Of a DNA stretch of 64,000 nucleotides, positions 22,246 to 56,183 are shown piece after piece. The position numbers were made by a program, and so were the translations under genes. Source of the DNA: Gammaproteobacteria bacterium (GTDB lineage Bacteria; Pseudomonadota; Gammaproteobacteria; UBA6429; Thiohalophilaceae); assembly GCA_016194635.1 (NCBI GenBank), contig JACQBC010000001.1:186001-250000 (forward strand). Reading direction: 5' to 3'. Position 1 is the stretch's first letter, and every line of letters starts with the position of its first letter. The notes under the pieces were generated by a model. That model was given only the letters and a program-made list of their open reading frames with translations. It was not told where the DNA came from and made no database searches.

Positions 22246-22363
22246 GCTGGTGGTTGACGGGTTCTCGGGGTGGGCGACTCGCTGTAAATACGTCCCTGTA
22301 CGCTCGACGGCCGCATCCCTGCGGCCGACGGTCGCCCACCCCGAGAACCCGCCAACCACCAGC
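22246..22363. repeat. Conserved-core palindrome, copy A
   Basis: Left arm 22246-22278 and right arm 22331-22363 (33 nt each) are inverted complements with one mismatch. They enclose a 52-nt core, 22279-22330. Inside the core CGGCCGCA/TGCGGCCG forms an 8-bp hairpin; copies B, D and E have GGCGGC/GCCGCC there, a compensatory change. The GGGA-loop strand is the minus strand, opposite to both flanking genes. The element is 65 nt after the dam stop. The rest of the 388-nt gap (22364-22569) shows no gene. Confidence 0.9.
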
Positions 22364-22569
22364 AGCACTCGCAGCCATATAATGATGGTGATTTTCTAAA
22401 TAAGCGCTAAAAGATCCTCTCCATTTTGAAACGGTCATTTAGATAACATGAATAATATGCGCTGCCGATCACGCTTTCGCCGATTTCTCCCCCGCGACGG
22501 TAAAGTTTTTGGGTATTAAACCGAAAAAAAGTACATGTATTTGTCTAGCCCACTAGGAACAACCCCACC

Positions 22570-22989
22570 ATGCCACTGATTGAATCAACACCGCCCATGG
22601 ATGACGAAGAATATTTTGATATCACCAAAAGCATCTTGGTATTACAACGGGATGAACACTTGGGGGCACTGCTGCGTTATCTACTCGAACGTGAAGGTTA
22701 TGCCGTACAGCTGATTAAAGACATGGAGAACGCCTTGCTATACATTGAAAACGCCCCACCCACGGATTTGATCCTGGTGGGCGAAGAGTGGCTGGTAGAA
22801 AAGAATTACCCGCTATTGCCGATTTTACGCAACTATCCGGGTTGGCTGGCGGTACCGGTGGTGAGTTTGATGCAACACTTTAGCCCTGACCAAATCGACC
22901 GCGAATTACACGCCGGGGTGACGGACTATTTGCAACAACCGTTTGAGCCTAGCGTATTATTGGATCGCATCCAACAGTATACGAATTAG
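22570..22989 (+). CDS. Degenerate receiver-domain protein (pseudo-receiver)
   Basis: 139 residues, a single CheY-like receiver fold (ILVLQRDEHLGALLRYLLE ... LILVGEEW ... PVVSLMQ ... YLQQPFEPSVLLDRI). The acidic pair is Gln26-Arg27, the phospho-acceptor position is Gly71 and the usual Lys is Gln123, while Ser99 is kept. It therefore cannot be phosphorylated in the normal way and probably works by protein contact. There is no output domain. It is convergent with a PilB/GspE-type ATPase whose stop is 5 nt away, which hints at, but does not prove, a link to type IV pili or secretion. Confidence 0.8.
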   Translation: MPLIESTPPMDDEEYFDITKSILVLQRDEHLGALLRYLLEREGYAVQLIKDMENALLYIENAPPTDLILVGEEWLVEKNYPLLPILRNYPGWLAVPVVSLMQHFSPDQIDRELHAGVTDYLQQPFEPSVLLDRIQQYTN

Positions 22990-22994
22990 TTACA

Positions 22995-24779
22995 TTAGAT
23001 CTCGTTGTCCGGCGGAACCACTTTGAGGACCTCTTCGATGGTGGTCATTCCCATGGCCACTTTGCGGGCCCCGGAGATACGTAATTTACTCATGCCGAGT
23101 TTCACGGCCGCGCGGCGGATCGCATCGGCGTCGCTTTCGGGCGTAATTGTTGTGCGCAGGGTTTGTTCCAAGATCATAATTTCGTATAAACCCACTCTGC
23201 CATAAAATCCAGTGTGACGGCATTCGTCGCAACCCACCGGTTTAAAGAACTTGCCCTTGCCGGACATCTTCCACGGTTTGGTGAGCGATTCCCATAAACG
23301 GGGATCAATTTCGGTGGGCACCTTACAACGCGGGCAAAGGGTGCGCGCCAGGCGTTGTGCCATCACTCCAATCAGGGTGGCATTGATCAAATACGCCGGC
23401 ACGCCGATTTCGCGCAAGCGCGGAATCGCCGCCGCGGCATCGTTGGTGTGCAGGGTGGATAATACTAAATGACCTGTCAGCGCGGCTTGAATCGCCATTT
23501 CGGCGGTTTCTTTATCGCGGATTTCACCCACCATGATAATGTCCGGGTCTTGACGCAGCAAGGTGCGAATACCGGTGGCAAAGCTGACGCCGATATTATG
23601 TTGCACCTGCATTTGATTAAATTCCGGCACTACCATTTCAATTGGGTCTTCCACCGTGCAGACATTTACATCCGGCGTCGCCAATTGCTTCAAGGTGGAG
23701 TACAAGGTGGTGGTCTTGCCCGAGCCGGTTGGACCGGTGACTAATACGATGCCGTGGGGTTGGTTGATCATCTTATTCCAGTCGGCAATATCGCGCTCGC
23801 CAAACCCCAGTGCGGTGAAATCCTTTACCAATACATCGGGATTAAAAATACGCATCACCAATTTTTCGCCAAATGCGGTCGGCATGGTTGATAGGCGCAA
23901 TTCGATTTCTTCGCCTTCGGGGGTTTTGCTTTTAATCCGGCCGTCCTGCGGACGGCGTTTTTCTACCACGTCCATGCGGCCCAGTACCTTCACGCGCGAG
24001 ATCACCACGTTCATGACCGGTGTAGGCATTTCATACACCATGTGCATTACCCCGTCGATACGAAAGCGAATGTTGCTCATATCGCGGCGCGGCTCTAAAT
24101 GAATGTCGCTGGCGCGTTGATCAAAGGCGTATTGCAATAACCAATCGACAATATGCACCACGGACTGGTCATTGGTATCCAGGCGACCGGTTTTACCCAA
24201 TTCAACCAATTGTTCAAAATTGGTAACCCCGGGAATATCTTTATCGTTGTCGCTGGTGGCGCGGCGGATCGAATGACTGACACTGTAGAATTCATTCAAA
24301 TACCGCGAAATATCCAACGGGTTGGCGATGACCCGTTCGATTTGTAAACCGCTGACGTGGGTGATTTCATTCTCCCAGCTACGCACGTGCGGTTCCGCCA
24401 TGGCAATCACGACCTTGCCATCCTTGACCAGCACCGGCAGTATCTTGAAACGATTCGCATAGGCCGCTGACGTCACGGCAGTGACGGCCGTCACATCCAC
24501 TTTAAGGGGATCAATCCGGAAATAGGATAAATTCACTTGCTTGGCCAACCATTGCGTCAGGGCTTCCAGATCCAGTACCTTATGCGGGGCTTGTTGATCC
24601 TTCCATTCTTGTTGCGAAATAATCACCAACGGATGTATATCCAACCGACCGGTACGCGCCGGGATTAAAAACATATCGGCGTTGTCCTTGCTAATACGTT
24701 TGTCCGCGACCAACCCATCAATTAATTCACGCACCGTGAGTTTGCGATCTAATACTGTGATGCTATTAAATTGTTGCAT
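22995..24779 (-). CDS. PilB/GspE-family secretion ATPase
   Basis: 594 residues. An N-terminal MshEN/T2SSE_N-type region (about 1-170) is followed by the ATPase core with GPTGSGKTTT (Walker A), the Asp box in TVEDPIEM, Walker B DIIMVGEIRD, and the His box TGHLVLSTLHTNDA. A zinc tetracysteine (LCPRCK ... CDECRHTG) sits in the C-terminal third, as in GspE and PilB. The enzyme powers assembly of a type IV pilus or type II pseudopilus. No pilC, pilD or gsp genes are adjacent. It starts 3 nt after ptsP in the same direction, an unusual neighbour. I cannot choose between PilB, GspE and MshE from this alone. Confidence 0.9.
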   Translation of the reverse strand: MQQFNSITVLDRKLTVRELIDGLVADKRISKDNADMFLIPARTGRLDIHPLVIISQQEWKDQQAPHKVLDLEALTQWLAKQVNLSYFRIDPLKVDVTAVTAVTSAAYANRFKILPVLVKDGKVVIAMAEPHVRSWENEITHVSGLQIERVIANPLDISRYLNEFYSVSHSIRRATSDNDKDIPGVTNFEQLVELGKTGRLDTNDQSVVHIVDWLLQYAFDQRASDIHLEPRRDMSNIRFRIDGVMHMVYEMPTPVMNVVISRVKVLGRMDVVEKRRPQDGRIKSKTPEGEEIELRLSTMPTAFGEKLVMRIFNPDVLVKDFTALGFGERDIADWNKMINQPHGIVLVTGPTGSGKTTTLYSTLKQLATPDVNVCTVEDPIEMVVPEFNQMQVQHNIGVSFATGIRTLLRQDPDIIMVGEIRDKETAEMAIQAALTGHLVLSTLHTNDAAAAIPRLREIGVPAYLINATLIGVMAQRLARTLCPRCKVPTEIDPRLWESLTKPWKMSGKGKFFKPVGCDECRHTGFYGRVGLYEIMILEQTLRTTITPESDADAIRRAAVKLGMSKLRISGARKVAMGMTTIEEVLKVVPPDNEI

Positions 24780-24782
24780 CGA

Positions 24783-27056
24783 TTATCGCCCCGCGCGTAC
24801 CAATCCGCCCAGACCCATGGATTCCATCTGGCCGTTCATATAGTCTCGTACCGTTTGTGCATCTTCCATTTGTAATACAGCCTCAACGTAGCCGCGCGCA
24901 CGCTCCATCGTCAAATTCCGGATCACCCACTTGACCCGGTTTAAACTGGCGGTGCTCATGCTCAAACTGTCGATCCCCATCCCCACCAGCAAGGCCGCCG
25001 CGACCGGATCCGCCGCCATTTCACCACAGACACTCACCGGTTTGTTGGCCGCATGGCCGCTGCGAATCGTGTGGTTCACCGCAAGTAACACCGCTGGGTG
25101 CAAACTATCATACAATTCCGCCACGCGGGCGTTGTTGCGATCCACCGCGAGTAAATATTGGGTCAGATCGTTGGTGCCGATCGAAAGAAAATCCACCCGT
25201 CGGGCCAGATTTTCCGCCAGATACACCGCCGAAGGCACTTCGATCATCACGCCGATTTTAGGCAGGTTGAGCATGTTGCCTTCTTCGTTAAGCTCTTGAT
25301 GGGCGCGACGGATCAAGGTCAAGGAGTCATCGAGCTCGGAGACACGGCTGATCATCGGTAGCAAGATATATAAATTATCCACTCCGGCGGAGGCGCGTAA
25401 CATAGCACGCACTTGGACAATAAAGATTTCCGGATGATCCAAGGTAATACGGATCCCGCGCCAGCCCAAGAAGGGATTGTCCTCCTTGATCGGAAAATAC
25501 GGCAGGGCTTTATCACCGCCAATGTCCAAGGTGCGTAATACCACCGGTTTGGGTGCAAAGGCATGCAACACTTGCCGATACACCCGCATCTGTTCTTCTT
25601 CACCCGGAAAACGCTGCCGGATCATAAACGGAAACTCGGTGCGGTATAACCCGATACCATCAGCACCCGTGCTCAGCGACGGGTTGATATCCGCCAATAA
25701 TCCTGTATTCGCATACAGCGGGACGGTATTACCGTCTTGGGTTTGCGAGGGCACGTCGGCCAAGCGCAATAAATCCTCGGCCAGGGCCGCTTCTTCTTTT
25801 GCCAGCCGTTCAAACTCGGTGATTACCCGCAGCGGTGGCGAAATATAGACATTGCCGTTATATCCATCGGCGATAATCACCGAACCGTCGATACGATGCA
25901 CCGGGAGATCTTCCGCGCCCATCACCGCCGGCACACCCAGAGCGCGCGCTAGGATAGCCACGTGCGAGGTACGCGAACCGCGCGCCGCCACAATGCCGCG
26001 TAAACGTTCGGTGGGGACATCGCCCAGCATGGGCGCAGTAATTTCTTCTCCGACCAACACGGTATGCTCTGGAAACTCGCGTTTATAGGTCTCATCGCGC
26101 AATAAATAATGCAAAATACGCCGCGCCAATTCGCGCAGGTCTTCGGCGCGTTCACGCAAATATGCGTCATCCATCTCTAAGAATACTTTGACTTGTTCTT
26201 CGATGGTGGCACGTAACGCTCCCGCCGCCCAATTGCCTTCCATGATCCGTGTGGCGGTAGCGCCACGCAGCGAGTGGCTGTCGAGCATCAGTAAATAGGC
26301 GTCGAACAAGCGCCGCTCCTCGCTGGGTAATACCTCACGCAAGCGATTGGATAACATCGTCAAGTCTTGTTTTACCGAGGATAACGCATGGTGAAACGCG
26401 TCGATCTCGGCTTGAATATTACCCACCTTACGATCCGGGATAGCGTCCAGATCGGTTGAGGGATAAATATGCACCGCCGTGCCAATCGCCACGCCTGGCG
26501 CGCCGGGTAATCCTTTTAAGGGACGCGCGTCTTGTTGTTTTGGATCATGCTGCTTCAACAAAATATCGGTTTCACCACTGGTCTTAGCGTGTGCCATCGC
26601 CCCGGCCAATTGCGCCGCCATGGTGATAAGAAAATTTTCGTGTTCTTCATCAAAACGCTCTACCCGTGTCTGTCTTACCACCAACACACCCAATACCTTA
26701 CGATGATGAATAATCGGTACGCCTAAAAAGGCATGGAATTGCTCCATACCAATTTTGTCGCTGTGATGGTAGTGGGGATGTATTTGTGCATCGGCGAGGT
26801 TGAGGGGTTCGGCGCGTGCCGCCACCAAACTGATCAATCCGGTATTAAACGCCAGCCGTACTTTACCGACTGACTCGGGCTTTAGGCCCTGGGTGGCCAT
26901 TAAAACGTGTTGTTGTTGCTTTTCATCGGTCAGATAAATAGAACAGACGTCCACCCCCATGGCTTCACGAATACGCTGCACAATGATCGATAATGCTTGA
27001 TCTAAATCGCGCGCCGAGTTGACATCCTGGATGATACTACGAAGGGTATTGAGCAT
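24783..27056 (-). CDS. ptsP: PtsP, enzyme I of the nitrogen phosphotransferase system
   Basis: 757 residues. An N-terminal GAF domain (about 1-150) precedes the PTS enzyme I part: swivel domain with the phospho-His motif GSRTSHVAILARA (about 355), and the PEP-binding barrel with LRTLDIGGDK and SIGTNDLTQYLLA, and GEMAADP near the end. PtsP takes phosphate from PEP and passes it to NPr and EIIA-Ntr, signalling nitrogen status. The rppH-ptsP order is conserved in gammaproteobacteria. It begins 17 nt after rppH. Confidence 0.97.
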   Translation of the reverse strand: MLNTLRSIIQDVNSARDLDQALSIIVQRIREAMGVDVCSIYLTDEKQQQHVLMATQGLKPESVGKVRLAFNTGLISLVAARAEPLNLADAQIHPHYHHSDKIGMEQFHAFLGVPIIHHRKVLGVLVVRQTRVERFDEEHENFLITMAAQLAGAMAHAKTSGETDILLKQHDPKQQDARPLKGLPGAPGVAIGTAVHIYPSTDLDAIPDRKVGNIQAEIDAFHHALSSVKQDLTMLSNRLREVLPSEERRLFDAYLLMLDSHSLRGATATRIMEGNWAAGALRATIEEQVKVFLEMDDAYLRERAEDLRELARRILHYLLRDETYKREFPEHTVLVGEEITAPMLGDVPTERLRGIVAARGSRTSHVAILARALGVPAVMGAEDLPVHRIDGSVIIADGYNGNVYISPPLRVITEFERLAKEEAALAEDLLRLADVPSQTQDGNTVPLYANTGLLADINPSLSTGADGIGLYRTEFPFMIRQRFPGEEEQMRVYRQVLHAFAPKPVVLRTLDIGGDKALPYFPIKEDNPFLGWRGIRITLDHPEIFIVQVRAMLRASAGVDNLYILLPMISRVSELDDSLTLIRRAHQELNEEGNMLNLPKIGVMIEVPSAVYLAENLARRVDFLSIGTNDLTQYLLAVDRNNARVAELYDSLHPAVLLAVNHTIRSGHAANKPVSVCGEMAADPVAAALLVGMGIDSLSMSTASLNRVKWVIRNLTMERARGYVEAVLQMEDAQTVRDYMNGQMESMGLGGLVRAGR

Positions 27057-27073
27057 GACGCCTTGGGATAATT

Positions 27074-27547
27074 CTAACCCTGGATGAGTGGTATCAATTC
27101 CTGCAAGGCGCGATGATACACCGTACGTTTAAAGGCAACCACTTGGTTAACGGTTTCGGTGTATTGGATCCACCGCCAGCAATCAAACTCGGGTTTATCA
27201 CTGGCGGTAAGACAGACGTGTTGTTCGCTCCCCACCAGGCGTAATAGAAACCAGATCTGTTTCTGGCCAATGAACAGATTGGTACGCCGTTGCTGTAAAA
27301 ACCGGCGCGGTATGCGGTAACGTAGCCAGCGGGTGGTGCGTCCGACCACCTCAACATGTTCGGGGCCTAAACCAATTTCTTCCCACAGCTCACGGTACAA
27401 GGCTTGTTCAGGGGTTTCATTGTGGCGGATTCCCCCCTGTGGAAATTGCCAAGCTTCTTCACCGCTACGCCGTGCCCAAAACACCTCCCCTGCGGGATTA
27501 CACAGGATGATACCGACATTGGGTCTATAACCTTGACGATCAATCAC
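27074..27547 (-). CDS. rppH: RNA pyrophosphohydrolase RppH
   Basis: 157 residues if started at the GTG at 27547, giving VIDRQGYRPNVGIIL, which aligns with the MID-x-x-GYRPNVG start of RppH. An earlier GTG at 27589 would add 14 unrelated residues. The Nudix box GGIRHNETPEQALYRELWEE is intact, and GQKQIWFLLRL is the RppH-specific stretch. The enzyme converts 5'-triphosphate mRNA ends to monophosphate and so opens RNase E decay. It is first in the rppH-ptsP unit. Confidence 0.94.
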   Translation of the reverse strand: MIDRQGYRPNVGIILCNPAGEVFWARRSGEEAWQFPQGGIRHNETPEQALYRELWEEIGLGPEHVEVVGRTTRWLRYRIPRRFLQQRRTNLFIGQKQIWFLLRLVGSEQHVCLTASDKPEFDCWRWIQYTETVNQVVAFKRTVYHRALQELIPLIQG

Positions 27548-27652
27548 TTGAGCACCGGAGCTGATAATATTTCTAACCCATTCTTCCACACCCCCAGCGG
27601 GGTGTAAATCCCTGTTAAGATTGCGCCCGTTTAGCCACGGGAGTAATGCTTC

Positions 27653-28312
27653 TTGAGTTTAGCCATGTTTGATTTAGATAACACCCTATTGGCGGGAGAT
27701 AGTGACTATTTATGGGGGCAGTTCCTGGCCCGCCAGGGCATTGTCGATGCCGCTTGGTATGAGGAGGAGAACCGCCGCTATTACCGGGCCTACGAGGCCG
27801 GTAGCTTAGATATCCACGCGTTTCTGGCCTTCAGCCTCAAACCGCTAACAAGACTGGCCCCCGATCAGCTTGTAACCCTCCACGCCCGCTACATGGTTGA
27901 ATGTATTCAGCCCTTGATCCGGCCCGCCGCCTTGGCCTTGGTGGAGAAACACCGCCGCCTCGAACAACAGTTAATGATCATCACCGCCACCAACCGGTTT
28001 ATCACGGCCCCCATCGCCCAGGCCTTCGGCATTGACGTGTTGCTGGCCACCGATCTTGAAATAATCGATGGCCGTTATACCGGCCGGATCAGTGGGATAC
28101 CGTGTTTTAAAGAGGGTAAGGTTATCCGCTTGCAACAATGGTTAACGCAACACCACCAGAGCCTGGAGCAAAGCTGGTTTTACAGCGACTCGCACAATGA
28201 TCTGCCGTTGTTACACCAAGTGACCCATCCGATCGCGGTTGACCCCGATCCGACACTGCGTCAACACGCGATTCAACAGCATTGGCCGATCCTGGCCTTG
28301 CACCATGGTTGA
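27653..28312 (+). CDS. HAD-IB family phosphatase (SerB-like)
   Basis: 219 residues from a TTG at 27653, supported by GGGAG nine nt upstream and by the family start M-x-L-A-x-FDLDNTLLAGDSD. HAD motifs: FDLDNT (nucleophile Asp7, Asp9), ITATN (motif II), and YSDSHNDLPLL (motif IV). HAD-IB members act on phosphoserine, histidinol phosphate or phospholipid phosphates; the substrate cannot be read from sequence. Its end overlaps the btuC start by 8 nt, so the two are probably translated together, though a direct B12 role is not implied. Confidence 0.85.
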   Translation: MSLAMFDLDNTLLAGDSDYLWGQFLARQGIVDAAWYEEENRRYYRAYEAGSLDIHAFLAFSLKPLTRLAPDQLVTLHARYMVECIQPLIRPAALALVEKHRRLEQQLMIITATNRFITAPIAQAFGIDVLLATDLEIIDGRYTGRISGIPCFKEGKVIRLQQWLTQHHQSLEQSWFYSDSHNDLPLLHQVTHPIAVDPDPTLRQHAIQQHWPILALHHG

Positions 28313-30786: not shown

Positions 30787-30964
30787 ATAGAACCTGTATA
30801 AATATTAAGCTTATTTAACCACGAATCCCTGCGCTATGCACTCCCTAAGATCGTGATTTCGACCTAGGTTAACAATAGACTATAATCGGCTGATCTAATA
30901 GCATTTTCAGCAGTGCTCCCTATTTTGAGAACTGGCTGGCGGATTGCCGCGCCAAAATTCCGTC

Positions 30965-30994: not shown

Positions 30995-31009
30995 CCCGAC
31001 GTTAACCGC

Positions 31010-31210
31010 TTAGGTGTCCCCGGGGTGCAAACCCAGGGGATGAAACGGGAAGCCGGTGCAAACTGATCACTTGATCTAGACCATTCCGGCGCTGCCCCCG
31101 CAACGGTGAGCAAGTTAGTGATTCCACAGCCACTACCCAAACCTTAGGTGGGAAGGCGAATCACACGGATGCCACATCCTACTTGCAAGCCCGGAGACCG
31201 GCCTGACGGA
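31010..31210 (+). ncRNA. Cobalamin riboswitch upstream of btuB
   Basis: The leader has the conserved cobalamin-aptamer series in order: GGTG near the 5' side, GATGAAACGGGAAGCCGGTG (31038-31057), GCTGCCCCCGCAACGGTGAG (B12 box, about 31092-31111), and the closing CCCGGAGACCGGCCTG (31190-31205). These are the P3-P6 and B12-box landmarks of the AdoCbl-type aptamer. Between the aptamer and the btuB start there are about 130 nt that may carry the expression platform; no clear terminator hairpin was identified. Binding of adenosylcobalamin normally lowers expression of btuB. It probably also controls the tonB-like and adenosyltransferase genes downstream. Confidence 0.95.
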
Positions 31211-31340
31211 ACACAACGATGTGTCGCGGCGGGCGGAACATACGGGTGCAAGCTTTTTCCCCTGCTTCCTCCTGTTACCCCTCGCTAGTGACACCCTAAT
31301 AACAACGCGCGCGGGTGTGCGCAATTTCGGAGAAGTGTTC

Positions 31341-33185
31341 ATGTCGTATCGTGTTGTCCGGCTAGGTGTCGGTGCGTTTATTTTATTACCTTCAATTTCC
31401 ACCTTAAACCTATTTGCCGCCGAGACCGTTGAACCGGTGGTGGTGACGGCGACACGGACTGCCCAGACAGCAGATCAGGCTCTGGCCTCTGTAACAGTTA
31501 TTAATCGAGAAGATATCGAACGTACCCAGGCGAAAACCCTAAGCGACATTTTGCGTAATCTTGCGGGAATAGATGTTGCTAATTCGGGAGGCATTGGAAA
31601 AGCAGAAAGTATTTTCATACGCGGTACAAACTCCGATCATGTCCTAGTCCTAGTAGATGGTGTACGCGCAGGTTCTGCAACACTCGGCACTTTTGCCTGG
31701 CAAAATTTCAGCCCCGATCAAATTGAAAAAATTGAAGTGGTACGCGGTCCACGCGCCGCTCTCTATGGCTCGGATGCTATCGGTGGAGTTATCCAGATAT
31801 TTACGCGGAAAAATTCCGGTAACGAATTCTCTGTTTCCAAAGGCACGCATAACACTGCGGAAGAAAAAATCAGCCTCGGTGGCGGCAAAGATAACTATTA
31901 CAGCCTGCAGGCGGGTAAATTAACCACGGACGGAATATCCATCAGCAATAAGTTAAAAGGAAAATACGGGTACACAAATACTAACGCAACCCTACGTGGT
32001 GGTGTAACAATAACTAAAACCGCTCGACTCGATGGAGGTTTTACCCAAAGTTACGGGAAAAATCGACTTGACGTCGACACCGGCGACCTAGATTTTCGCA
32101 ATCAGGTAGCCAATCTTAAATTTAGCGATCAGATTGATGATTTTTGGAATCCTACTTTGCAAACTAGTGATGTACTTGATCGTAGCGTGTCCTATAGTCC
32201 GTATACCCCTGGGACAATTACTACACGACGTAGGAGCATCAACCTGCAGAACGATGTACATTGGCAACAAGGAGTAACTACAGCAGGTATTGAACAAGTT
32301 AAGGACCATGCCACGAAAGACAACAGTGGCGAAATCGATCGCACTTTACGTAACAACGCGTTTTACATCCAACATCAACATCATTGGGATATTTACGATA
32401 TATTAGTCGGTCAACGGCATGATGATAATAATAACTATGGAAAACATAATACCTGGAATGCCGCTGTCGGTATGGAAACCGGGGCGACACGCTATTTTAT
32501 TTCAGCCGGAACGGCGTTTAAAGCCCCTACGGTAAATGCTTTGTATTGGCCGTATAGCAGTAGTGTCTACATCGGGAATACTTATATAGAGCAAGGCAAC
32601 CCGAATCTGGCACCAGAACGGAGCCACAGCTATGAACTCGGAATGCGACATAAACTTAGCGATAAGACTCGATTCGAAGCCAATTTATATTATACACGAT
32701 TAAGTGATCTAATCGTATGGGTATCAACACCTACCGGCCCTAATCAGTATACGTATCAACCACAAAACATTAACAACGCATCGATTCGTGGATTAGAAAT
32801 GACCTGGACCTCAGCAATCAGTAACTGGGAATTAGCTGGGAATTTCACTGCAACTCACGCGACTGACGATTCGACAGGGCGACAACTCGATCGTCGGCCT
32901 AAAGAACAACTGAAATTACAGGCTACCTACCAACAGGATACATGGCGTTGGCACAATGAAGCAATCTATGCATCGCAACGTTTGGACAATCAAGGTGCTA
33001 GCCGCCTTGAGCCGTATACATTATTTAACACAACGGCAATGTATCAACTCAGTAAGCAGTCATCATTAAATGCTAGAGTAGAAAATGTTTTTAACGCGCA
33101 ATACGTCTTGGCCACATCGTTTAGTGGTGATTACGTTACTTATGGAAGAACCCTCTACATAAGCCTAAGCCACTCACTACCTTAA
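31341..33185 (+). CDS. btuB: TonB-dependent cobalamin receptor BtuB
   Basis: 614 residues from ATG 31341 with GGAGA upstream; the same length as E. coli BtuB. A longer frame from 31221 lies inside the riboswitch region and was rejected. The signal peptide ends near LFAAE. The TonB box is PVVVTATR. A plug domain follows (about 45-150, with IFIRGTNSDHVLVLVDGVRAG) and then a 22-strand barrel ending GRTLYISLSHSLP. It brings vitamin B12 through the outer membrane. Base composition is lower in G+C than the btuCD genes (line 31921 has 22 G/C of 60; line 29041 has 34 of 60). Confidence 0.93.
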   Translation: MSYRVVRLGVGAFILLPSISTLNLFAAETVEPVVVTATRTAQTADQALASVTVINREDIERTQAKTLSDILRNLAGIDVANSGGIGKAESIFIRGTNSDHVLVLVDGVRAGSATLGTFAWQNFSPDQIEKIEVVRGPRAALYGSDAIGGVIQIFTRKNSGNEFSVSKGTHNTAEEKISLGGGKDNYYSLQAGKLTTDGISISNKLKGKYGYTNTNATLRGGVTITKTARLDGGFTQSYGKNRLDVDTGDLDFRNQVANLKFSDQIDDFWNPTLQTSDVLDRSVSYSPYTPGTITTRRRSINLQNDVHWQQGVTTAGIEQVKDHATKDNSGEIDRTLRNNAFYIQHQHHWDIYDILVGQRHDDNNNYGKHNTWNAAVGMETGATRYFISAGTAFKAPTVNALYWPYSSSVYIGNTYIEQGNPNLAPERSHSYELGMRHKLSDKTRFEANLYYTRLSDLIVWVSTPTGPNQYTYQPQNINNASIRGLEMTWTSAISNWELAGNFTATHATDDSTGRQLDRRPKEQLKLQATYQQDTWRWHNEAIYASQRLDNQGASRLEPYTLFNTTAMYQLSKQSSLNARVENVFNAQYVLATSFSGDYVTYGRTLYISLSHSLP

Positions 33186-38548: not shown

Positions 38549-38678
38549 GTGATGTTGGTTGTTGCCTGGTTCACCGGTACAGGTGACCGTCGGCGGCAGG
38601 GATGCCGCCGTCGAGCGTACAGGGATGTATTTACAGCGAGTCACCTGTACCGGTGAACCAGGCAACAACCAACATCAC
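38549..38678. repeat. Conserved-core palindrome, copy B
   Basis: Two 39-nt arms, 38549-38587 and 38640-38678, are perfect inverted complements with no mismatch. The 52-nt core 38588-38639 contains the octamer CAGGGATG twice: in GGCAGGGATGCC and in TACAGGGATGTA. Both form hairpins with a GGGA loop. The GGGA strand is the plus strand, sense to pdsO (stop 109 nt upstream) and antisense to convergent btuF (stop 48 nt away). Confidence 0.95.
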
Positions 38679-42619: not shown

Positions 42620-42634
42620 TTCGATACCTACTAA

Positions 42635-42756
42635 TGAGTCACATGGAAAGGATACCCTCCCACCAAGACCGTCAGCCGCAGGGATGCTGCCGTCGAGTCT
42701 ACAGGGAGGTATTGACGGCGTGTCTTGGTGGGAGGGTATCCTGTCCATGTGACTCA
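42635..42756. repeat. Conserved-core palindrome, copy C
   Basis: Arms 42635-42669 and 42722-42756 (35 nt) are inverted complements with one mismatch. The 52-nt core 42670-42721 is the most diverged of the five, and its first hairpin has two mismatches. The GGGA strand is the plus strand. The element nearly fills the gap between two convergent genes, 16 nt from the iscR stop and 17 nt from the stop at 42773. Confidence 0.88.
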
Positions 42757-42772
42757 GTAATATATTCCGAAG

Positions 42773-45215: not shown

Positions 45216-45262
45216 AATCATATCAGTATAGATCATAGGTTTAGACGGAGTCTAGAAATAAC

Positions 45263-47109: not shown

Positions 47110-47135
47110 TGATTGTACCTAATGAGACTCGTTAG

Positions 47136-47651: not shown

Positions 47652-47653
47652 CC

Positions 47654-48841: not shown

Positions 48842-48843
48842 TT

Positions 48844-49422: not shown

Positions 49423-49468
49423 CCGTTATGATTAATTTGAGACGCTAACACGATCTCGGAGAAGTACG

Positions 49469-52400
49469 ATGAAAACGCAAAAACTCCTCAACCATTATGC
49501 TGCTGCCAGTATGTTGTTATGCCTAGGTGTTAGCAACATACAAATAGTCAGCGCCGCAACGGCAAATCTCTCCGACACTCCACTATTTCTCACTACCCAC
49601 GCCGAATCCAATATGTTCTTTATTTACGATGATTCTGGCAGTATGGCTTCTGAAATGCTTACACCACAAGACAATGGGGATCTGGGCGGTGTTTATTGCC
49701 ACGAAAATACTTCTCCAGATCCAGCGACCGTCGCATTCAACACCAAGTGCGCGGGAGGAAGCGGTACAAGCTTAATGTACATTTATGCCAAAGACACAAA
49801 ATCCTTCCCCGCAGGCCAAGGTATTGTGGGAAAAAACAGCGCTGGCAAAGACGTTCCCATCAATAATGGCGACGGCGCGCCCGTGGCAGCATGGTACCTA
49901 CGCTCCCATGACTACAACGCTCAATACTACAATCCCAACACCGTCTATAAACCCTGGCCGCCTTCATCCAATGCCACGACTACCACTTTCTATCCAAACA
50001 GTTCGCCTACGGCAGCCCCTGTTTCACCCCTTTCAACAACCGTTGTGGATTTAACACGAACGGATTGGTCAGGATTGACTGGTATACAAGCAGCTCACTA
50101 CTATACGTGGAAAGACACAAACGGCGATGGCCTTCCTACCAGCGGTGAAGGCACACTTGTTCAAATATCAACCCCAACCGAATTACAAAACTTCGCCAAC
50201 TGGTTTACCTATTACCGCACGCGTTCGCTTGCCGCACGCGGTTCTGTCGGTTCTGTTATCAGCGATATTGGCAATAATGTGCAAATGCGTGTTGGTTTTA
50301 TGGCAATTAATGATGGTAGTAATAATACCAAAATGACCTCTATTTCGACGCCTAATAATACTGACCCCAGTTCACCAGGGGTTAAAAACAGACGGTCGGT
50401 TTTAAATTCCTTGTATAAACTTTCCGCTGCTAACGGTACCCCTTTACTTGATTCTCTGCAAAAAGCAGGAAATTATTTCGCCTGTGATGGCAACGCAACT
50501 CCTTTTACCACCTCTGATTGCGCACTTGATCCGGCAGTGAAAGCATGTCAGCAAAACTTTATCGTTATGATCACCGATGGAGAATATAATGGTAGTTATA
50601 CCGCAGCCCCCGGCCGTGATATTGCGGATAATCTCATATCAACATCTCCTCGCGCTGGCGATACCGCCTTTGACGGTGATCCCTATGCTTCAAACGCTTC
50701 GAATACACTAGCCGATTTGGCCATGTATTATTATGAACATGACCTAGATGGTAATAATATGAATAACCAAGTACCCACAGTTTGCGGTGTTGATGAAAAC
50801 GCAGGTCAGCACGCAGTCTTTTATGCCCTGAGCTTTGGTATTTCAACGGATATTATACAACCGCCCTTCCATCCCCAGCTTAATATCGCTCCAAATAACT
50901 GCACTGTTACCACAATTCCCGATCCCTATAACTACATCAACCCCAAAACAGGGTTGACTGCAAGTATTAGCGGCTGGAAAACTTCCGGGTGGCCATGGAA
51001 AGACGCCACGACGGACCCTCATTACAGGATAAACGATCTTGTCCATGCCACGTTTAATGGACGTGGCAAGTATTATCCCGCGACATCTCCTGAACTTTTG
51101 GTAGCGGGTCTAAAAGATACCGTCAGTAATATTAATAGCCGCCGTGGTGCCGCGGCGGCTGTAGGTCTAAACAGTACCAGCAATACCACAGGCACACAGG
51201 TATATTTCGCACGATTTTATTCCGGTAATTGGTTTGGTGAGCTATCAGCGGATACACTCGACCCGCTAACAGGGGCACTTATCGCACATGCATGGGATGC
51301 CCACGGTACCACTGCGGGATTATTAAATACGTTATCGAACGATCAAGTTCGTGATCCAGACAATGATAGTATCTTGGTGGCGCCTGCTCCAGCGCCCACC
51401 GGTTACCAATCCGCCAACAGCACTTCCATTACACGCGCTGTTGTCACTTTTAATCCAGGAGCGATTGCCGCCCCCTATGGCATTGGATTTCACTGGACAA
51501 AACTAGCCTCTGCTCAAAAAGATGATTTACGTACCAATAGTAGCGGTACCCTTGACCCCGATGCCATCGCTCAAATGCGTTTGAACTACATCCGCGGTGA
51601 TCATCGTTGTGAAACGGGATACACTACTGACCTCACTCGAGATCGTTGTCCTGATGCGGCGAAGATTTTCCGTACGCGTAAGGACAACACAAGTAATTTC
51701 ACTCGCTTGGGTGATTTTATTAACTCCTCTCCAATCTATGTTGGAACCCCGGTAGGCGGATATCCCAACACTGCCCCCTTCCCCACAGGAGGAGATACCT
51801 ACCAAAATTTCAAAGACGGGGTTTCGAACGCAGCTTTTAGTAGTGTTAGTAACAATGCAAAAACCCGTACGCCCATGCTCTATCTGGGCGGTAACGACGG
51901 GATGTTGCATGGATTTAACACGACGTCGGGACAAGAGGTTTTCGCCTATATCCCAAATACCTTGTTCGCCGCGGCAACCCCGGTAAATGGCGCGGATGGA
52001 TTACATAAACTCACCGAGGCCGGCCAACATCGCTCCTATGTCGATCTGACCCCGACAATCGCTGATGCGTATACTGAAACCCCCAGCGACCCAACCAAGA
52101 AATGGCGTAGCATTTTAGTGGGTGGTCTACGCCATGGGGGTAAGGGTATTTACGCGTTAGATATCACCGATCCAGATTATTTAATTAGCGCTACCGGCTC
52201 TATTCGTGAGGACCACACCGCAGAAAAAGTGATGTGGGAATTTAACGATGCCACCAGCCCCGGCAACATGGGTTATAGCTATAGCCAACCGGTGATCGCT
52301 CCCTTACGCATCGGTTCAGGCAATACCGTTAACGATATTGCCTGGTTTGCAATTTTTGGCAATGGTTATAATAGTACCAACGGGAACGCCATTTTGTACT

Positions 52401-53434
52401 TGGTGAAACTGTCCGGCCCTTCTGGAACAGGCAGTGTCTATACCATCGACACCGGTGTAGGAAACCCTGCAAGTACAAGCGGCGTAACCCCTAATGGACT
52501 TTCTTCCCCCGCCGTTATTGATGTGGATGGAGATGGTATCTACGATAGGGTATATGCTGGGGATCTCTACGGTAATATGTGGGTGTTTAATCTTGCCGGG
52601 TTACCCTCCAGTTGGACAAATACCGCCGCTAGTACGTTATTTACCGCTAAGAATGGAAGTGGAGAGGTTCAACCTATCACGGTAAAACCTGTTGTGATGC
52701 GCAATACGGCAACCGCATCAGGAACGGCACCGAACTTACTTGTTTTATTCGGAACAGGCCAATATATGGCCGAAGGTGATCAAACCAGTACCTCCACCCA
52801 GAGTTTCTATGGGGTATGGGATAATGGAACCCGCAACCTAACACGCACTGATCTTCAATCGCAATTGATAACTACTGTCAATGCCTCTTTCAATGTAACT
52901 ACAACCACAACCACAACTAAAACAATCCGTATATTAAATAATGGGTCAGTGGATTATACTACCAAACACGGCTGGTCCATGGACTTTGACCCCCGTGAAC
53001 GTATAGTCTCTAAAGCAACCTTGTTAGGCAATACATTGATTTTCCCTACCATAGTGCCATCGGATGCGGGTTGCGGTGGTGGCGGCACAAGCTGGTTGAT
53101 GGCCGTCAATCCCCTAAACGGCAATACCCCGGGAATATCCGTCTTTGATGTGAATGGCGATCATAGCATTGGTAATCCCGACGACTACTTAGCACCTGGC
53201 GGTTCCTCTCCCCAGATTATTGCGGGTTTGCAAAACCCCAACATGACACCTGACTACGCCTACGCCGCTCCGAGTAATACCGCGAGCGGTAATAATCCAA
53301 AACCATGTGCGAAAGGATCCTATATTCAAGCTATAGGCACTGCTACGAATGCCACCACTACGGCACAAAGCATGTGTGTGGAAGGCGGTTCCGGTAAACC
53401 CGGCCGTTACTCCTGGCATCAGGTAGGTTTCTAA
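49469..53434 (+). CDS. pilY1: Pilus tip adhesin PilY1
   Basis: 1321 residues. Signal peptide ends near VSAAT. A degenerate vWA-like N-terminal half opens with FFIYDDSGSMASE (MIDAS-type D-x-S-x-S, 55-59) and has ITDGEYNG. The C-terminal beta-propeller of PilY1 (about 720-1200) has YLGGNDGMLHGFN and the calcium-binding loop DVDGDGIYDR (about 1018-1027). In Pseudomonas PilY1 serves pilus extension, adhesion and surface sensing. GGAGAAG precedes the ATG. The stop is directly followed by the last pilin gene. Confidence 0.93.
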   Translation: MKTQKLLNHYAAASMLLCLGVSNIQIVSAATANLSDTPLFLTTHAESNMFFIYDDSGSMASEMLTPQDNGDLGGVYCHENTSPDPATVAFNTKCAGGSGTSLMYIYAKDTKSFPAGQGIVGKNSAGKDVPINNGDGAPVAAWYLRSHDYNAQYYNPNTVYKPWPPSSNATTTTFYPNSSPTAAPVSPLSTTVVDLTRTDWSGLTGIQAAHYYTWKDTNGDGLPTSGEGTLVQISTPTELQNFANWFTYYRTRSLAARGSVGSVISDIGNNVQMRVGFMAINDGSNNTKMTSISTPNNTDPSSPGVKNRRSVLNSLYKLSAANGTPLLDSLQKAGNYFACDGNATPFTTSDCALDPAVKACQQNFIVMITDGEYNGSYTAAPGRDIADNLISTSPRAGDTAFDGDPYASNASNTLADLAMYYYEHDLDGNNMNNQVPTVCGVDENAGQHAVFYALSFGISTDIIQPPFHPQLNIAPNNCTVTTIPDPYNYINPKTGLTASISGWKTSGWPWKDATTDPHYRINDLVHATFNGRGKYYPATSPELLVAGLKDTVSNINSRRGAAAAVGLNSTSNTTGTQVYFARFYSGNWFGELSADTLDPLTGALIAHAWDAHGTTAGLLNTLSNDQVRDPDNDSILVAPAPAPTGYQSANSTSITRAVVTFNPGAIAAPYGIGFHWTKLASAQKDDLRTNSSGTLDPDAIAQMRLNYIRGDHRCETGYTTDLTRDRCPDAAKIFRTRKDNTSNFTRLGDFINSSPIYVGTPVGGYPNTAPFPTGGDTYQNFKDGVSNAAFSSVSNNAKTRTPMLYLGGNDGMLHGFNTTSGQEVFAYIPNTLFAAATPVNGADGLHKLTEAGQHRSYVDLTPTIADAYTETPSDPTKKWRSILVGGLRHGGKGIYALDITDPDYLISATGSIREDHTAEKVMWEFNDATSPGNMGYSYSQPVIAPLRIGSGNTVNDIAWFAIFGNGYNSTNGNAILYLVKLSGPSGTGSVYTIDTGVGNPASTSGVTPNGLSSPAVIDVDGDGIYDRVYAGDLYGNMWVFNLAGLPSSWTNTAASTLFTAKNGSGEVQPITVKPVVMRNTATASGTAPNLLVLFGTGQYMAEGDQTSTSTQSFYGVWDNGTRNLTRTDLQSQLITTVNASFNVTTTTTTTKTIRILNNGSVDYTTKHGWSMDFDPRERIVSKATLLGNTLIFPTIVPSDAGCGGGGTSWLMAVNPLNGNTPGISVFDVNGDHSIGNPDDYLAPGGSSPQIIAGLQNPNMTPDYAYAAPSNTASGNNPKPCAKGSYIQAIGTATNATTTAQSMCVEGGSGKPGRYSWHQVGF

Positions 53435-53435
53435 T

Positions 53436-53876
53436 ATGCTCAGTATAGGTAAAACCATCCGCGGCTTAACCTTGATCGAATTGATGGTGACCGTTGCCAT
53501 CATTACGATACTGGCCGGTATTGCCTGGCCACCGTATAACGGTTATATCTCAAGAGGTCACCGAGCCGATGCAATAATGTTAATAACAAAAGTACAAGGC
53601 TATCTTGAAAGCTGCTATAGCCAACAACGAAATTATAATACTTGCAATAGTAGTATTCCATCCAACATCACAACCCCTGTGCCACCAAATGATCACTTTA
53701 CTGTTGCCGTTGCTACATCCGCAACCAATCCCGACAACTTTATTATCACTGCCACCGGTAATACTGCGCAGCAAGCTAGTGACGATAGTTGTATAACCTT
53801 CACGCTTAATCAGGCTGGGGTAAAAGGTTACACCAAGGCAAGTAGTGCCACCTCTACAAATTGCTGGCCTAACTAA
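53436..53876 (+). CDS. pilE: Type IV minor pilin PilE-like
   Basis: 146 residues. Prepilin site IRG-LTLIELMVTVAIITIL has Leu after the cleaved Gly. PPYNGYISRGHRADA and a C-terminal disulfide-type region (DDSCITFTLNQAG ... TNCWPN) fit PilE of the PAO1 fimU-pilE cluster. It starts one nt after the pilY1 stop, and no pilY2 is present between them. The stop is 2 nt from the convergent ispH gene. Confidence 0.88.
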   Translation: MLSIGKTIRGLTLIELMVTVAIITILAGIAWPPYNGYISRGHRADAIMLITKVQGYLESCYSQQRNYNTCNSSIPSNITTPVPPNDHFTVAVATSATNPDNFIITATGNTAQQASDDSCITFTLNQAGVKGYTKASSATSTNCWPN

Positions 53877-53878
53877 AA

Positions 53879-54811
53879 TCACTGCAACACCTTCGGCAAC
53901 GAAAACGTTACATTCTCTTGCCGCACGCTAAGCTCACTCACCTGTTGTACTCCCCAAATTTTTAACTTGGCGAGCACCTCTTGCACCAAGATATCCGGCG
54001 CGGAGGCTCCGGCGGTGACACCAATATTATATTTATCCTCTAGCCACTCACGCTTAATCTGCGCGGCATTATCGATCAAGTAGGCCGTCGCCCCCAGACG
54101 CTCAGCGAGTTCTTTTAGGCGATTGGAGTTGGAACTGTTGTGCGAACCCACTACTAATACGACGTCGCATTGCGGGGCGATGTGTTTGACGGCGTCTTGA
54201 CGGTTTTGGGTGGCGTAACAAATGTCGTCTTTCTTCGGTCCGTGGATCGCGGGGAAACGCCGCCGCAAGGCGTCGATCACCGCGGCGGTGTCGTCCATCG
54301 ACAAGGTGGTCTGGGTGACATAACACAGGGTGTCGGGGTTGCGGATCTGGAGTTTTTGCACATCCGCCACCGACTCGATCAGATACATCGCACCGCCCTG
54401 CTCGGCGTTGAACTGCCCCAGGGTGCCTTCTACTTCGGGATGTCCCGCATGGCCTATGAGAATGCACTCGCGGCCCTCGCGGCTGTAACGCATGACTTCC
54501 ATATGGACTTTAGTCACCAAAGGACAGGTGGCATCAAACACTTTCAACCGCCGTTGTTTGGCTTCGTCTTGCACCGACTTGCTCACCCCGTGGGCACTGA
54601 AAATCACAATCGCTCCGTCTGGTACTTCAGATAATTCTTCTACGAAGACCGCGCCCTTGGCGCGCAAGCCATCAACCACGAATGTATTGTGCACGACTTC
54701 ATGCCGCACATAGATCGGCGCACCAAAGTTTTCAATCGCGTGCTCGACGATGGCGATGGCACGATCGACCCCGGCACAAAAACCACGTGGATTGGCTAAA
54801 AATAATTGCAT
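53879..54811 (-). CDS. ispH: 4-hydroxy-3-methylbut-2-enyl diphosphate reductase IspH (LytB)
   Basis: 310 residues from ATG 54811 (E. coli 316). The frame continues to 54880 but that runs through palindrome copy D and was rejected. The 4Fe-4S ligands are visible: Cys12 (NPRGFCAGV), Cys in [12 protein letters not shown] and Cys in [12 protein letters not shown], with [11 protein letters not shown] and GSHNSSNS of the active site. It makes IPP and DMAPP at the end of the MEP pathway. It is last in ileS-lspA-fkpB-ispH, but is cut off from fkpB by a 40-bp-stem palindrome that ends 23 nt before its start codon. Confidence 0.97.
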
Positions 54812-54834
54812 ATAAATCGCGCCTTTAATTGGAG

Positions 54835-54964
54835 GCCGGTTGATAGTGGTGGTAGGTTGTCCGGGTGATGTGACTCGCACAAATACATCCCTCTAGCTCG
54901 ACGGCGGCATCCCTGCCGCCAACGGTCACATCACCCGGACAACCTACCACCACTATCAACCGGC
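54835..54964. repeat. Conserved-core palindrome, copy D
   Basis: Arms 54835-54874 and 54925-54964 are perfect 40-nt inverted complements. The core 54875-54924 has 50 nt and keeps GGCGGCA/TGCCGCC around a GGGA loop on the minus strand, sense to the operon. It stands between fkpB (stop 27 nt away) and ispH (start 24 nt away). In the operon transcript the hairpin would sit immediately before the ispH ribosome-binding region. Confidence 0.95.
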
Positions 54965-54990
54965 AGTGTCATATTTCATCGAATGATCTA

Positions 54991-55458
54991 CTACCCACCA
55001 ATAGGTGTATCCGCCATTTCGATAGCAAGAATCTCCACCGAAAAAATCACGGGTAAGCCCGCTAACGGATGATTAAAATCCACTTTCACCTCATCTCCTT
55101 CCACCGCCAGGATGGTGCCGGGCACCTCTACCCCATTGGGCGTAGAAAAATTCACAATAATCCCATAGTCCAGTGGGATATCCGCGGGAAATTCCTGGCG
55201 CGGGAGTGTATGGATATTGGTTTCATCGGGAAAGCCAAAGGCATCGTGCGGTGAAATCTCCAGGGTTTGCTTGTCACCGGTTTTAAGTCCATACAACGCC
55301 AGTTCCAAACCTTGGATCAAACTACCGTCGCCCATGGTAAACGTCATCGGCGCGCCGGGCTCGCTCGCATCGGCGACGGTGCCGTCTTTGAGCGTGAGTG
55401 AAAAATTCATGGTAACCACGCTCGCGGGTCCAATCGTGATGGCTTCAATGTTTGACAT
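54991..55458 (-). CDS. fkpB: FKBP-type peptidyl-prolyl isomerase SlpA/FkpB
   Basis: 155 residues. FKBP domain with the inserted IF (chaperone) flap of the SlyD/SlpA type: NFSLTLKDGTVADAS, GDGSLIQGLELALYGLKTGDKQ, and VDFNHPLAGLPVIFSVEI at the end. It lacks the His-rich tail of SlyD, so it is SlpA/FkpB. ATG overlaps the lspA stop by 1 nt (TAATG), giving translational coupling. The lspA-fkpB-ispH order is as in E. coli. Confidence 0.94.
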   Translation of the reverse strand: MSNIEAITIGPASVVTMNFSLTLKDGTVADASEPGAPMTFTMGDGSLIQGLELALYGLKTGDKQTLEISPHDAFGFPDETNIHTLPRQEFPADIPLDYGIIVNFSTPNGVEVPGTILAVEGDEVKVDFNHPLAGLPVIFSVEILAIEMADTPIGG

Positions 55459-55988
55459 TAACTTGCGGCTTTGTTTAATTTCGGTTGCACAATCAGGCTA
55501 TCGTACAAATACAGTATAGCGCCCACGGTAATCGCTGAATCCGCGATATTAAACGAGGGGAAAATACACATCGGACCGCGTGCGTCCACACCCGGACTAA
55601 ATCCAAGAATACAGGTTGTACCCCGGTAATACCATTGTATAAAATCAATGACGTAGCCGTGCCAGAGCCGATCAATCAGATTACCCACCGCGCCGCCCAA
55701 AATTAACGCTACCCCCCAGGCTGTGATACGCTCTGGCCGCGACAACCGCCGTAGCATCATGACCAACACCACACTCACCGCCGCGGCGATAACACTAAAA
55801 AACCAACGCTGCCAACCACCGGCATCCTCTAAGAAACTAAACGCCGCACCGGGATTGTGCATTAAAATAAAATTAAAAAACGGCAGCACTTCCACCGGCC
55901 GGTGCATGCTCAATAATATTGAGGCCAGGTATTTGGTCAGTTGATCCAGCACAATTACAACACTTGTTAGCAAATACCAATTCTTCAT
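55458..55988 (-). CDS. lspA: Lipoprotein signal peptidase LspA with inserted loop
   Basis: 176 residues, four membrane helices. LspA boxes: VIVLDQLTKYL, HNPGAAFSFLEDAGGWQRWFF, GGAVGNLIDRLWHGYVIDFI and FNIADSAITVGA; the two catalytic Asp lie in VIDFI and NIADS. Between them relatives have about six residues after the WY/FY; here RGTTCILGFSPGVDARGP plus MCIF adds about 16, including two Cys. The loop faces the periplasm next to the active site and might form a disulfide flap. LspA removes signal peptides from prolipoproteins. Confidence 0.95.
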   Translation of the reverse strand: MKNWYLLTSVVIVLDQLTKYLASILLSMHRPVEVLPFFNFILMHNPGAAFSFLEDAGGWQRWFFSVIAAAVSVVLVMMLRRLSRPERITAWGVALILGGAVGNLIDRLWHGYVIDFIQWYYRGTTCILGFSPGVDARGPMCIFPSFNIADSAITVGAILYLYDSLIVQPKLNKAAS

Positions 55989-56071
55989 CGTTCATCCAAT
56001 AAATTCATTGTCGGAATTCCTATTACGTAGACAATATAGCATGTGTTTTGTATCACCTATATACCAGCGCG

Positions 56072-56183
56072 ACATTCGCGGCTGTTGCATTTCTCCTGTG
56101 ACCGTCGGCGGCAGGAATGCCGCCACCGAGCTACAGGGATGTATTTATGCGTGTCACAGGAAAAATGCAACAGCCGCGAATGT
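56072..56183. repeat. Conserved-core palindrome, copy E
   Basis: Arms 56072-56102 and 56153-56183 (31 nt) are inverted complements with one mismatch. The core 56103-56152 has 50 nt. Its first hairpin has loop GGAA instead of GGGA, still of GNRA form, with intact stem GGCGGCA-like/TGCCGCC; the second is TACA-GGGA-TGTA. The GNRA strand is the plus strand, antisense to the operon. It lies 25 nt past the ileS stop and 84 nt before lspA; no other element occupies the gap. Confidence 0.93.

What the first reader, a model, noticed from the sequence alone, without database searches (positions are those of the whole stretch)
22246..56183. Family of palindromes with a conserved core and arms private to each copy
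Seen directly: five elements (22246-22363, 38549-38678, 42635-42756, 54835-54964, 56072-56183) share a 50-52 nt core. Their 31-40 nt arms are 97-100% inverted-complementary within a copy but show no alignment between copies, apart from GAC/GTC next to the core. In REP/REPIN/BIME-type elements the arms are conserved and the spacer varies; here it is the reverse. Possible origins (inference): insertion of the core together with an inverted copy of the flank, for example self-primed hairpin synthesis, or arm-to-arm gene conversion that keeps each stem perfect while sequences drift. No transposase in the window explains it.
Basis: partly seen in the sequence, partly recalled or inferred. Interest (0 to 1): 0.88.

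Follow-up and report, generated by a model that had tools for sequence, protein, structure and literature searches.

The report
Hairpin repeats with self-matching private stems
A bacterial genome carries about 150 copies of a short hairpin-forming repeat whose central part is conserved, while its two long arms differ from copy to copy yet match each other, which points to one arm being copied from the other; the conserved loops look like the binding site of a global RNA-binding regulator, CsrA.

Summary
The five palindromes are real. They belong to a family with at least 149 copies in this 3.7 Mb gammaproteobacterial genome, and a core pattern occurs in 46 of 369 sampled genomes of the class, own included. 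'Arms private to each copy' holds only in part. The 42.6 kb copy has arms shared by a class of 58 copies. The 22.2 and 38.5 kb copies carry drifted forms of one arm consensus. Only the 54.8 and 56.1 kb copies have arms unrelated to it.

In three relatives' families arm changes are made on both sides in step: two-sided against one-sided 20:5, 99:16 and 32:7 (gap-aware); own P class 232:32 (ungapped). Some copies share an indel in both arms, and the core is found flipped between its outer ends. This is the recorded signature of arm-to-arm template switching. One own class does not show it (43:197), so selection or a copy-time mechanism remains possible.

The core folds into two hairpins with A-N-GGA-N loops. 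A search that left the loop free found that motif in 136 of 150 listed matches. It matches the CsrA/RsmA consensus; binding is untested. Novelty: new variant of a known kind.

The parts
22245..22364 (-). Copy 1, drifted P-type arms (34 nt, 33 paired); core 22276-22333 on the - strand
38549..38678 (+). Copy 2, P-type arms (39 of 39 paired); core 38585-38642
38591..38610 (+). Hairpin A of copy 2: 7-bp stem, loop AGGGAT at 38598-38603; stem covaries between copies
38618..38629 (+). Hairpin B of copy 2: TAC/GTA stem, loop AGGGAT at 38621-38626, inside the CsrA-type consensus
42629..42762 (+). Copy 3, S-type (arms of a class of 58 own copies), TA at both ends; left arm is a mosaic of the two ancestral ends; core 42667-42724
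54835..54964 (-). Copy 4, arms unrelated to the arm consensus (40 of 40 paired); 56-nt core 54872-54927; between fkpB-like and ispH-like genes
56066..56189 (+). Copy 5, arms unrelated to the arm consensus (37 nt, 92%); 56-nt core 56100-56155; inside the ileS-lspA gap (219 nt here, 12 nt in the same-genus genome)
1268..1328 (-). Sixth, broken copy: mainly the 3' half of the core, no long arms

Best explanation
These are small non-coding, MITE-like interspersed repeats. Each carries a conserved core that folds into two short hairpins, held at the tip of a long stem made by the two arms. SHOWN: the core loops are A-N-GGA-N, and in most families the arms change in step within a copy while differing between copies. 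INFERRED, mechanism of the arms: during replication the long hairpin lets the polymerase use one arm as template for the other (quasipalindrome template switching). A mutation in one arm is then either erased or copied into the other, so the stem stays nearly perfect while its sequence drifts; now and then the same process flips the core between its outer ends. Over many copies and generations the arms lose all resemblance and look private. INFERRED, role of the core: read as RNA, it presents CsrA/RsmA-type binding hairpins, so the conserved part is kept because the transcript binds that regulator, or because the element needs those hairpins to move.
For: Gap-aware counts of changes present in both arms against one arm: G012 20:5 (14 distinct shared changes, 16 copies), G007 99:16 (23 copies), G017 32:7 (7 copies); re-dealing right arms among copies gives means of 2.6, 17.0, 6.6 and maxima of 12, 43, 28 in 1000 trials. 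Own P class, ungapped, 232:32 in 29 of 61 copies, re-dealt mean 40.5, maximum 73. Shared indels: two in G012 (L160, L202), none one-sided; in G007 both arms are 27 nt in L178 and L183 and 26 nt in 20 others, with one arm unmeasured in L213. Block replacement in the S class (my reading): 29 of 58 keep the two different ancestral inner ends, 14 have the left inner block replaced by the right type with the left outer sequence kept, 5 are right-type throughout, 7 have the outer ends reversed, 3 cannot be placed; none has the left type on both sides. Flips also in G012 (both orders among 16 copies; L171 against L172) and G007 (L216). One-sided mismatches in the four concerted families are 20 G.U, 13 A.C and 23 other on the core strand. 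Within-copy pairing does not fall with core divergence (rho -0.04). Arm homogenization plus spacer inversion is the stated product of template switching (PMC8604942, passages), proposed to maintain hairpin stems (PMC8794818, passages). Loops: with the loop left free, 136 of 150 listed rows, in 35 genomes, are A-N-GGA-N. E. coli CsrA consensus RUACARGGAUGU (PMC6692469, passages). csrA is present in this genome.
Against: The S class, in the same genome and with arms of similar length, is mainly one-sided: 43:197 over 58 copies, with 48 one-sided and no shared indels; 34:99 ungapped in 34 of 58. A purely passive process acting on every palindrome is therefore not enough. Over all non-S copies (51 of 57), gap-aware counts are 306:149, weaker than the ungapped P count, partly because gaps are placed ambiguously in diverged arms. 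Whether homogenization happens in place or only when a new copy is made is not resolved. Shared subfamily changes count once per copy. Copies were found by core similarity, so core conservation is overstated. For CsrA: between tandem genes the core lies in sense 26 times and antisense 32 times, so no orientation preference. csrA occurs in 36 of 40 genomes, with or without the repeat, and was not found in G021 (95% complete, 7 copies) or G032 (75% complete, 2 pattern matches). The repeats gave no Rfam match at gathering score and no CsrB/Rsm family in an E-value search of 8 loci. No transcript or binding data exist here.
Confidence: 0.55

Rival explanations
1. Selection alone keeps the stem: a paired stem is needed (as RNA or as extruded DNA), mutations in one arm are followed by compensating ones in the other, and no templated copying is involved.
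For: Arms pair almost perfectly whatever the core divergence. Hairpin A of the core also covaries: 42 two-sided cells against 21.1 in shuffles, 0 of 500 as high. The S class, not kept paired, could be the class without selection.
Against: Two-sided changes outnumber one-sided intermediates 4 to 6 fold in G012, G007 and G017 and 7 fold in P ungapped. Mismatches are not mainly G.U. Shared indels and block replacements would need improbable double events.
Confidence: 0.2
2. Copy-time synthesis: arms are perfect at birth because the element moves through a single-stranded intermediate in which one arm is copied onto the other, or because the inserted core copies the target flank.
For: 28 own copies have arms with almost no mutual similarity (4 of 378 pairs reach the 99.9% null score). 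The S class would be spread by an ordinary transposase and so keep imperfect arms. In L155 the arm encodes a basic tail of a carbon-nitrogen hydrolase-family protein, as could be expected of old host sequence.
Against: Arms are homologous between copies in G012, G007 and G017. Similarity to the arm consensus is a continuum tied to core identity. Within-copy pairing does not decay with core divergence. The tails of the relatives printed are short and unlike each other there, so that site decides nothing.
Confidence: 0.2
3. An ordinary REP/BIME-like repeat or a bidirectional terminator with no special biology.
For: Intergenic placement, 43 of 111 between convergent ORFs; strong stems.
Against: No Y1 transposase found; arms not conserved in most classes; no T-run directly follows the window stems (by reading); copies sit inside the ileS-lspA-fkpB-ispH series.
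Confidence: 0.05

Closest known systems
Quasipalindrome template-switch mutation (arm homogenization and spacer inversion)
   Same: Arms made identical, spacer (here the core) inverted, multi-base blocks replaced
   Different: The passages I read treat yeast coding inverted repeats, RNA genes and, by mention, short inverted repeats in proteobacteria (PMC8604942, PMC8794818); here it would act on an interspersed repeat family with 58-nt structured spacers
[quoted passage not shown]
   Same: Short, no gene, many copies, repeated ends in some shells (e.g. CTAAATA..GTTCCGAATACCAG in G012; TA at both ends of S copies)
   Different: The conserved part is the middle; similar cores sit in different shells; no parent transposase identified
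REP/REPIN/BIME elements with RAYT transposase
   Same: Intergenic, palindromic, many copies, sometimes in pairs
   Different: REP stems are conserved (recalled) and no Y1 transposase was found in this genome
CsrB/RsmZ-type sRNAs that sequester CsrA
   Same: Short hairpins with A-N-GGA loops, including the E. coli SELEX consensus
   Different: Two hairpins per short core on one long stem, dispersed in about 150 places; expression and binding unknown; no Rfam match

Membership tests
MITE | Many dispersed copies without a coding gene | tested here: met
   149 places in the own genome, 61 in G012, 58 in G007; 26 own copies lie within an unverified ORF of 100 aa or more; these ORFs were not compared with each other
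MITE | Terminal inverted repeats | tested here: inconclusive
   Clear in G012 (both ends CTAAATA..GTTCCGAATACCAG); imperfect in S; not delimited for P and X
MITE | Target-site duplication | tested here: inconclusive
   TA at both ends of S copies, no empty site seen; at the ends of the P/X palindromes 39 of 56 share no base
MITE | Ends shared with an autonomous transposon | not tested
   An S-arm pattern gave 104 places; of the 100 listed, 97 lie within 120 nt of a core and one (C13:40860) beside a core; C19:15266 and C19:202991 were not fetched
REP/REPIN | RAYT (Y1 transposase) in the genome | tested here: not met
   PF01797: 0 matches, controls ring in 5 of 14 genomes
REP/REPIN | Conserved stem, variable spacer | tested here: not met
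   P arms 0.68 and X arms 0.53 identical between copies, cores 0.885 and 0.834; cores were the search key, so their value is biased upward. S arms are conserved (0.86)
Template-switch (quasipalindrome) mutation | Arm homogenization in blocks and two-sided change | tested here: met
   not met in the S class as a whole (43:197)
Template-switch (quasipalindrome) mutation | Spacer inversion | tested here: met
   Core reversed relative to outer ends in S (7 of 58), G012 and G007
CsrA-binding RNA | GGA in a hairpin loop within the consensus | tested here: met
   consensus from PMC6692469
CsrA-binding RNA | Transcribed and bound by CsrA | not testable with these tools
   No expression or binding data
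CsrB/RsmX/Y/Z sRNA family | Match to the Rfam family | tested here: not met
   No such family (window, gathering) or (8 loci, E up to 5)

The most novel reading that the evidence does not exclude
The core is a mobile CsrA/RsmA decoy: a dispersed repeat that has spread through many Gammaproteobacteria, in some genomes in tens to hundreds of copies, by carrying ready-made binding hairpins for the cell's global RNA regulator on a stem whose sequence is free but whose pairing renews itself by template switching. The repeats together would set the free level of CsrA.
Probability: 0.25. Interest if true: 0.88.

Novelty: new variant of a known kind. Interest (0 to 1): 0.68.

Why it matters
It offers a natural, many-copy test of how long hairpins stay nearly perfect, with several families and one that fails. 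It also suggests that a regulator-binding RNA motif can be spread as an interspersed repeat across a bacterial class; the largest count seen was 402 pattern matches in one 5.1 Mb genome, G286.

Tried and rejected
Y1/RAYT origin: rejected. Rfam family: none at gathering score at the repeats; the weak hits (best Ysr224, 47 bits against 70 needed) I read as effects of the long stems. Empty sites: the same-genus genome G001 is too far for intergenic alignment (69% identity for the protein, 78% for IleS); it only shows a 12-nt ileS-lspA gap (lspA taken by ORF size) where the window has 219 nt, and the extra length exceeds the 124-nt palindrome, so the true insert is not delimited. Target-site duplication at P/X palindrome ends: no sign. 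Host origin of an arm through the gene in L155: undecided. Pfam gives carbon-nitrogen hydrolase; the name Lnt is recalled. The script stopped with an error after printing 16 of 30 loci, and several of those rows show an unrelated frame. csrA as a predictor: not discriminating. Orientation relative to genes: no bias. Plasmids gave one partial Halomonas match, phages none; viral contigs gave 4 stretches, not read. Literature: eight searches (listings with abstract starts) and passages of four papers (PMC9788540, PMC6692469, PMC8794818, PMC8604942) showed no description of this family; most subscription papers are not in that library. The shell divergence and side counts are not used, because L162 was assigned to the wrong side; its S tally misplaced C35:8796, and I recounted by reading. 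A first regular-expression loop timed out.

Rows dropped before counts: one search used 16 of 17 (G012), 23 of 23 (G007), 7 of 7 (G017), 34 of 58 (S) and 29 of 61 (P) copies; the rest were less than 75% paired or too far from the arm consensus. That ungapped count turned single shared indels into several changed cells (six for L202), so I repeated it with gaps, which left out 6 of 57 non-S copies with more than 11 differences. The core alignment A1 used 63 of the 67 cores recovered. Of 149 model matches, 136 were read and 13 not fetched. One search scored only 150 candidates, so 149 is a lower bound. Searches list about ten places per genome at most and are cut; own and G007 rows are not among the 150 rows. 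From the relatives I fetched mainly high-scoring matches.

Full report
What is there. The five palindromes exist as described. A script that measured the arms beside each core gave 39 of 39 paired bases for the 38.5 kb copy, 33 of 34 for the 22.2 kb copy, 34 of 35 for the 42.6 kb copy and 30 of 31 for the 56.1 kb copy; the 54.8 kb copy has 40 of 40. The core is one homologous sequence. A 19-base pattern matched 106 times in the genome and its reversed control not once. A covariance model of 58 positions built from 63 cores found 149 places, a lower bound because only 150 candidates were scored. I read 136 of them.

Arm classes. In the own genome three groups can be told apart. S copies (58) share their arms and mostly have TA at both ends. 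P copies have arms close to one consensus, TTGGTGGTTGCCGGGTTCACCGGTGCGGGT next to the core. X copies have arms that resemble neither that consensus nor one another: with the cut used, 28 copies gave 4 of 378 pairs at or above the 99.9% score of shuffled arms. P and X are ends of a continuum: identity to the consensus runs from 27/30 down to 11/30 and rises with core identity (Spearman 0.46, p 0.0003, 57 copies), while pairing within a copy is unrelated to either (rho -0.07 and -0.04).

Other genomes. Of 40 genomes searched, own included, 13 carried the pattern; the same-genus genome has 3 model matches, G007 58, G012 61, G017 28, G023 28, G021 7. In the copies fetched from G012, G007 and G017 the arms have consensus sequences of their own, and single copies depart from them on both sides in the same way. 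Across the class 46 of 369 genomes, own included, had an exact pattern match, the highest count being 402 in one genome.

Arms change in step. A gap-aware count of departures from each family's arm consensus, shared by both arms against one arm only, gave G012 20:5 (16 copies), G007 99:16 (23), G017 32:7 (7) and S 43:197 (58). Dealing right arms anew among copies gave means of 2.6, 17.0, 6.6 and 18.4 shared changes, maxima 12, 43, 28 and 29 in 1000 trials. For the own non-S copies together (51 of 57) it gave 306:149 (re-dealt mean 26.4, maximum 57); an ungapped count on the 29 of 61 copies nearest the P consensus gave 232:32 (re-dealt mean 40.5, maximum 73). Changes inherited by a subfamily are counted once per copy, which inflates the shared numbers; distinct shared changes are 14 in G012, 42 in G007 and 27 in G017. 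Between-copy identity of the inner 24 arm bases is 0.89 (G012), 0.73 (G007), 0.55 (G017), 0.68 (P) and 0.53 (X), against 0.49 for shuffled sequence, while within-copy identity is 0.99, 0.98, 0.90, 0.98 and 0.97 and core identity 0.98, 0.96, 0.96, 0.89 and 0.83; for S the three values are 0.86, 0.90 and 0.92. The arms thus drift faster than the core but in step; because copies were found by their cores, and in the relatives mainly the best-scoring ones were fetched, the conservation of the core is overstated.

Copying rather than step-by-step compensation. Four observations speak for copying. Indels are shared: two in G012 (L160, L202) and none one-sided, and in G007 both arms have 27 bases in L178 and L183 where 20 other copies have 26 in both. 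In S the two ancestral ends differ over a block; by my reading, 29 of 58 copies keep both types, 14 have the left inner block replaced by the right type while the left outer sequence remains (as in the window copy at 42.6 kb), 5 are right-type throughout, 7 have the ends reversed, 3 cannot be placed, and none has the left type on both sides; many of these may stem from one event that was then amplified. The core is found reversed between its outer ends in 7 of 58 S copies and in G012 and G007. One-sided mismatches in the four concerted families are 20 G.U, 13 A.C and 23 others on the core strand, not the clear G.U excess expected of an RNA stem kept by selection. Arm homogenization and spacer inversion are named together as products of template switching in PMC8604942 (abstract and passages), and PMC8794818 (passages) proposes template switching to explain perfect stems and tabulates loop inversions and stem insertions. 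The S result is the main difficulty: the same cell does not keep those arms equal. Possible reasons, untested: S is a burst from an imperfect master copy spread by another enzyme, or only P and X are under selection or still active.

The core. It pairs as a short closing stem (GACCG with CG.GTC), hairpin A (7 bp, loop AGGGAT) and hairpin B (TAC/GTA, loop A-N-GGA-N). Hairpin A covaries: 42 two-sided cells against 21.1 in shuffles (0 of 500 as high), but the number of pairs with such a change (4 against 3.0) and of pair types (13 against 12.5) is not above shuffles, and two of its seven pairs are often unpaired in S copies. In hairpin B the GGA is invariant in 63 of 63 aligned cores while the bases before and after it vary, but those cores were fetched with a pattern that contained it. 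To test this without assuming the loop, I searched 369 genomes for TAC, six free bases, GTATTNACRGCG: of 150 listed rows 136, in 35 genomes, read A-N-GGA-N; the two N positions show all four bases, and vary within a genome in 10 and 12 genomes. Of the 14 exceptions two (AGGGGC, GTGGAT) look like mutated forms and the rest could be background; the reversed control matched in 3 genomes. The E. coli CsrA SELEX consensus is RUACARGGAUGU, and A and GGA occurred in every selected C. jejuni ligand (PMC6692469, passages). Some own copies have longer cores with more hairpins of this kind, such as CACAAGGATGTG and GGCAGGATGCC. I take this as good evidence that the loops are recognised by something, and as a reasoned guess that it is CsrA. 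Against it stand the lack of orientation preference (26 sense, 32 antisense), the presence of csrA in relatives without the repeat (36 of 40 genomes have it), and G021 and G032, which have copies but no csrA found, both incomplete assemblies.

Where copies lie. Of 111 copies with an ORF called on both sides, 58 lie between tandem, 43 between convergent and 10 between divergent ORFs (not verified genes). Two window copies interrupt the ileS-lspA-fkpB-ispH series (Pfam identities): the ileS-lspA gap is 219 nt here and 12 nt in the same-genus genome.

Verdict. A real, widespread repeat family with a structured core. The private arms are best read as stems that drift but are kept equal by copying one arm onto the other, a process that one class in the same genome does not show. 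Membership in MITEs is likely but not proven, REP/REPIN is excluded by tested features, and CsrA binding is a testable proposal.

Noticed in passing
own genome, e.g. L003 583-961, L012 865-1362, L016 864-1296, L032, L151, L076, L120, L138: Of 13 neighbouring pairs within 1 kb, ten have the left core on the - strand and the right core on the + strand; this includes all eight pairs of two non-S copies closer than 400 nt (gaps 183-370 nt), in tandem, convergent and divergent gene settings.
   Followed up: partly
L001, L002, L007, L009, L017, L049, L052, L053, L070 near the core: Longer cores with extra hairpins inserted in hairpin A (loops AAGGAT, AGGAT), and other modules sharing only the 3' half of the core. 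G012 long cores carry a different insert.
   Followed up: partly
G012 L171-L174: A second element type with ends like CTAAATAGCCGTGCGAAAAAGGTGTCC carries the same kind of core, so similar cores sit in different shells.
   Followed up: no
window 30995-31220: Cobalamin riboswitch just before the ORF 31221-33185.
   Followed up: no
window 62067-62112: Perfect 22-nt inverted repeat with a 2-nt loop, not related to the core.
   Followed up: no
L155 955-1854: A carbon-nitrogen hydrolase-family reading frame runs through one arm and stops at the first bases of the core.
   Followed up: partly
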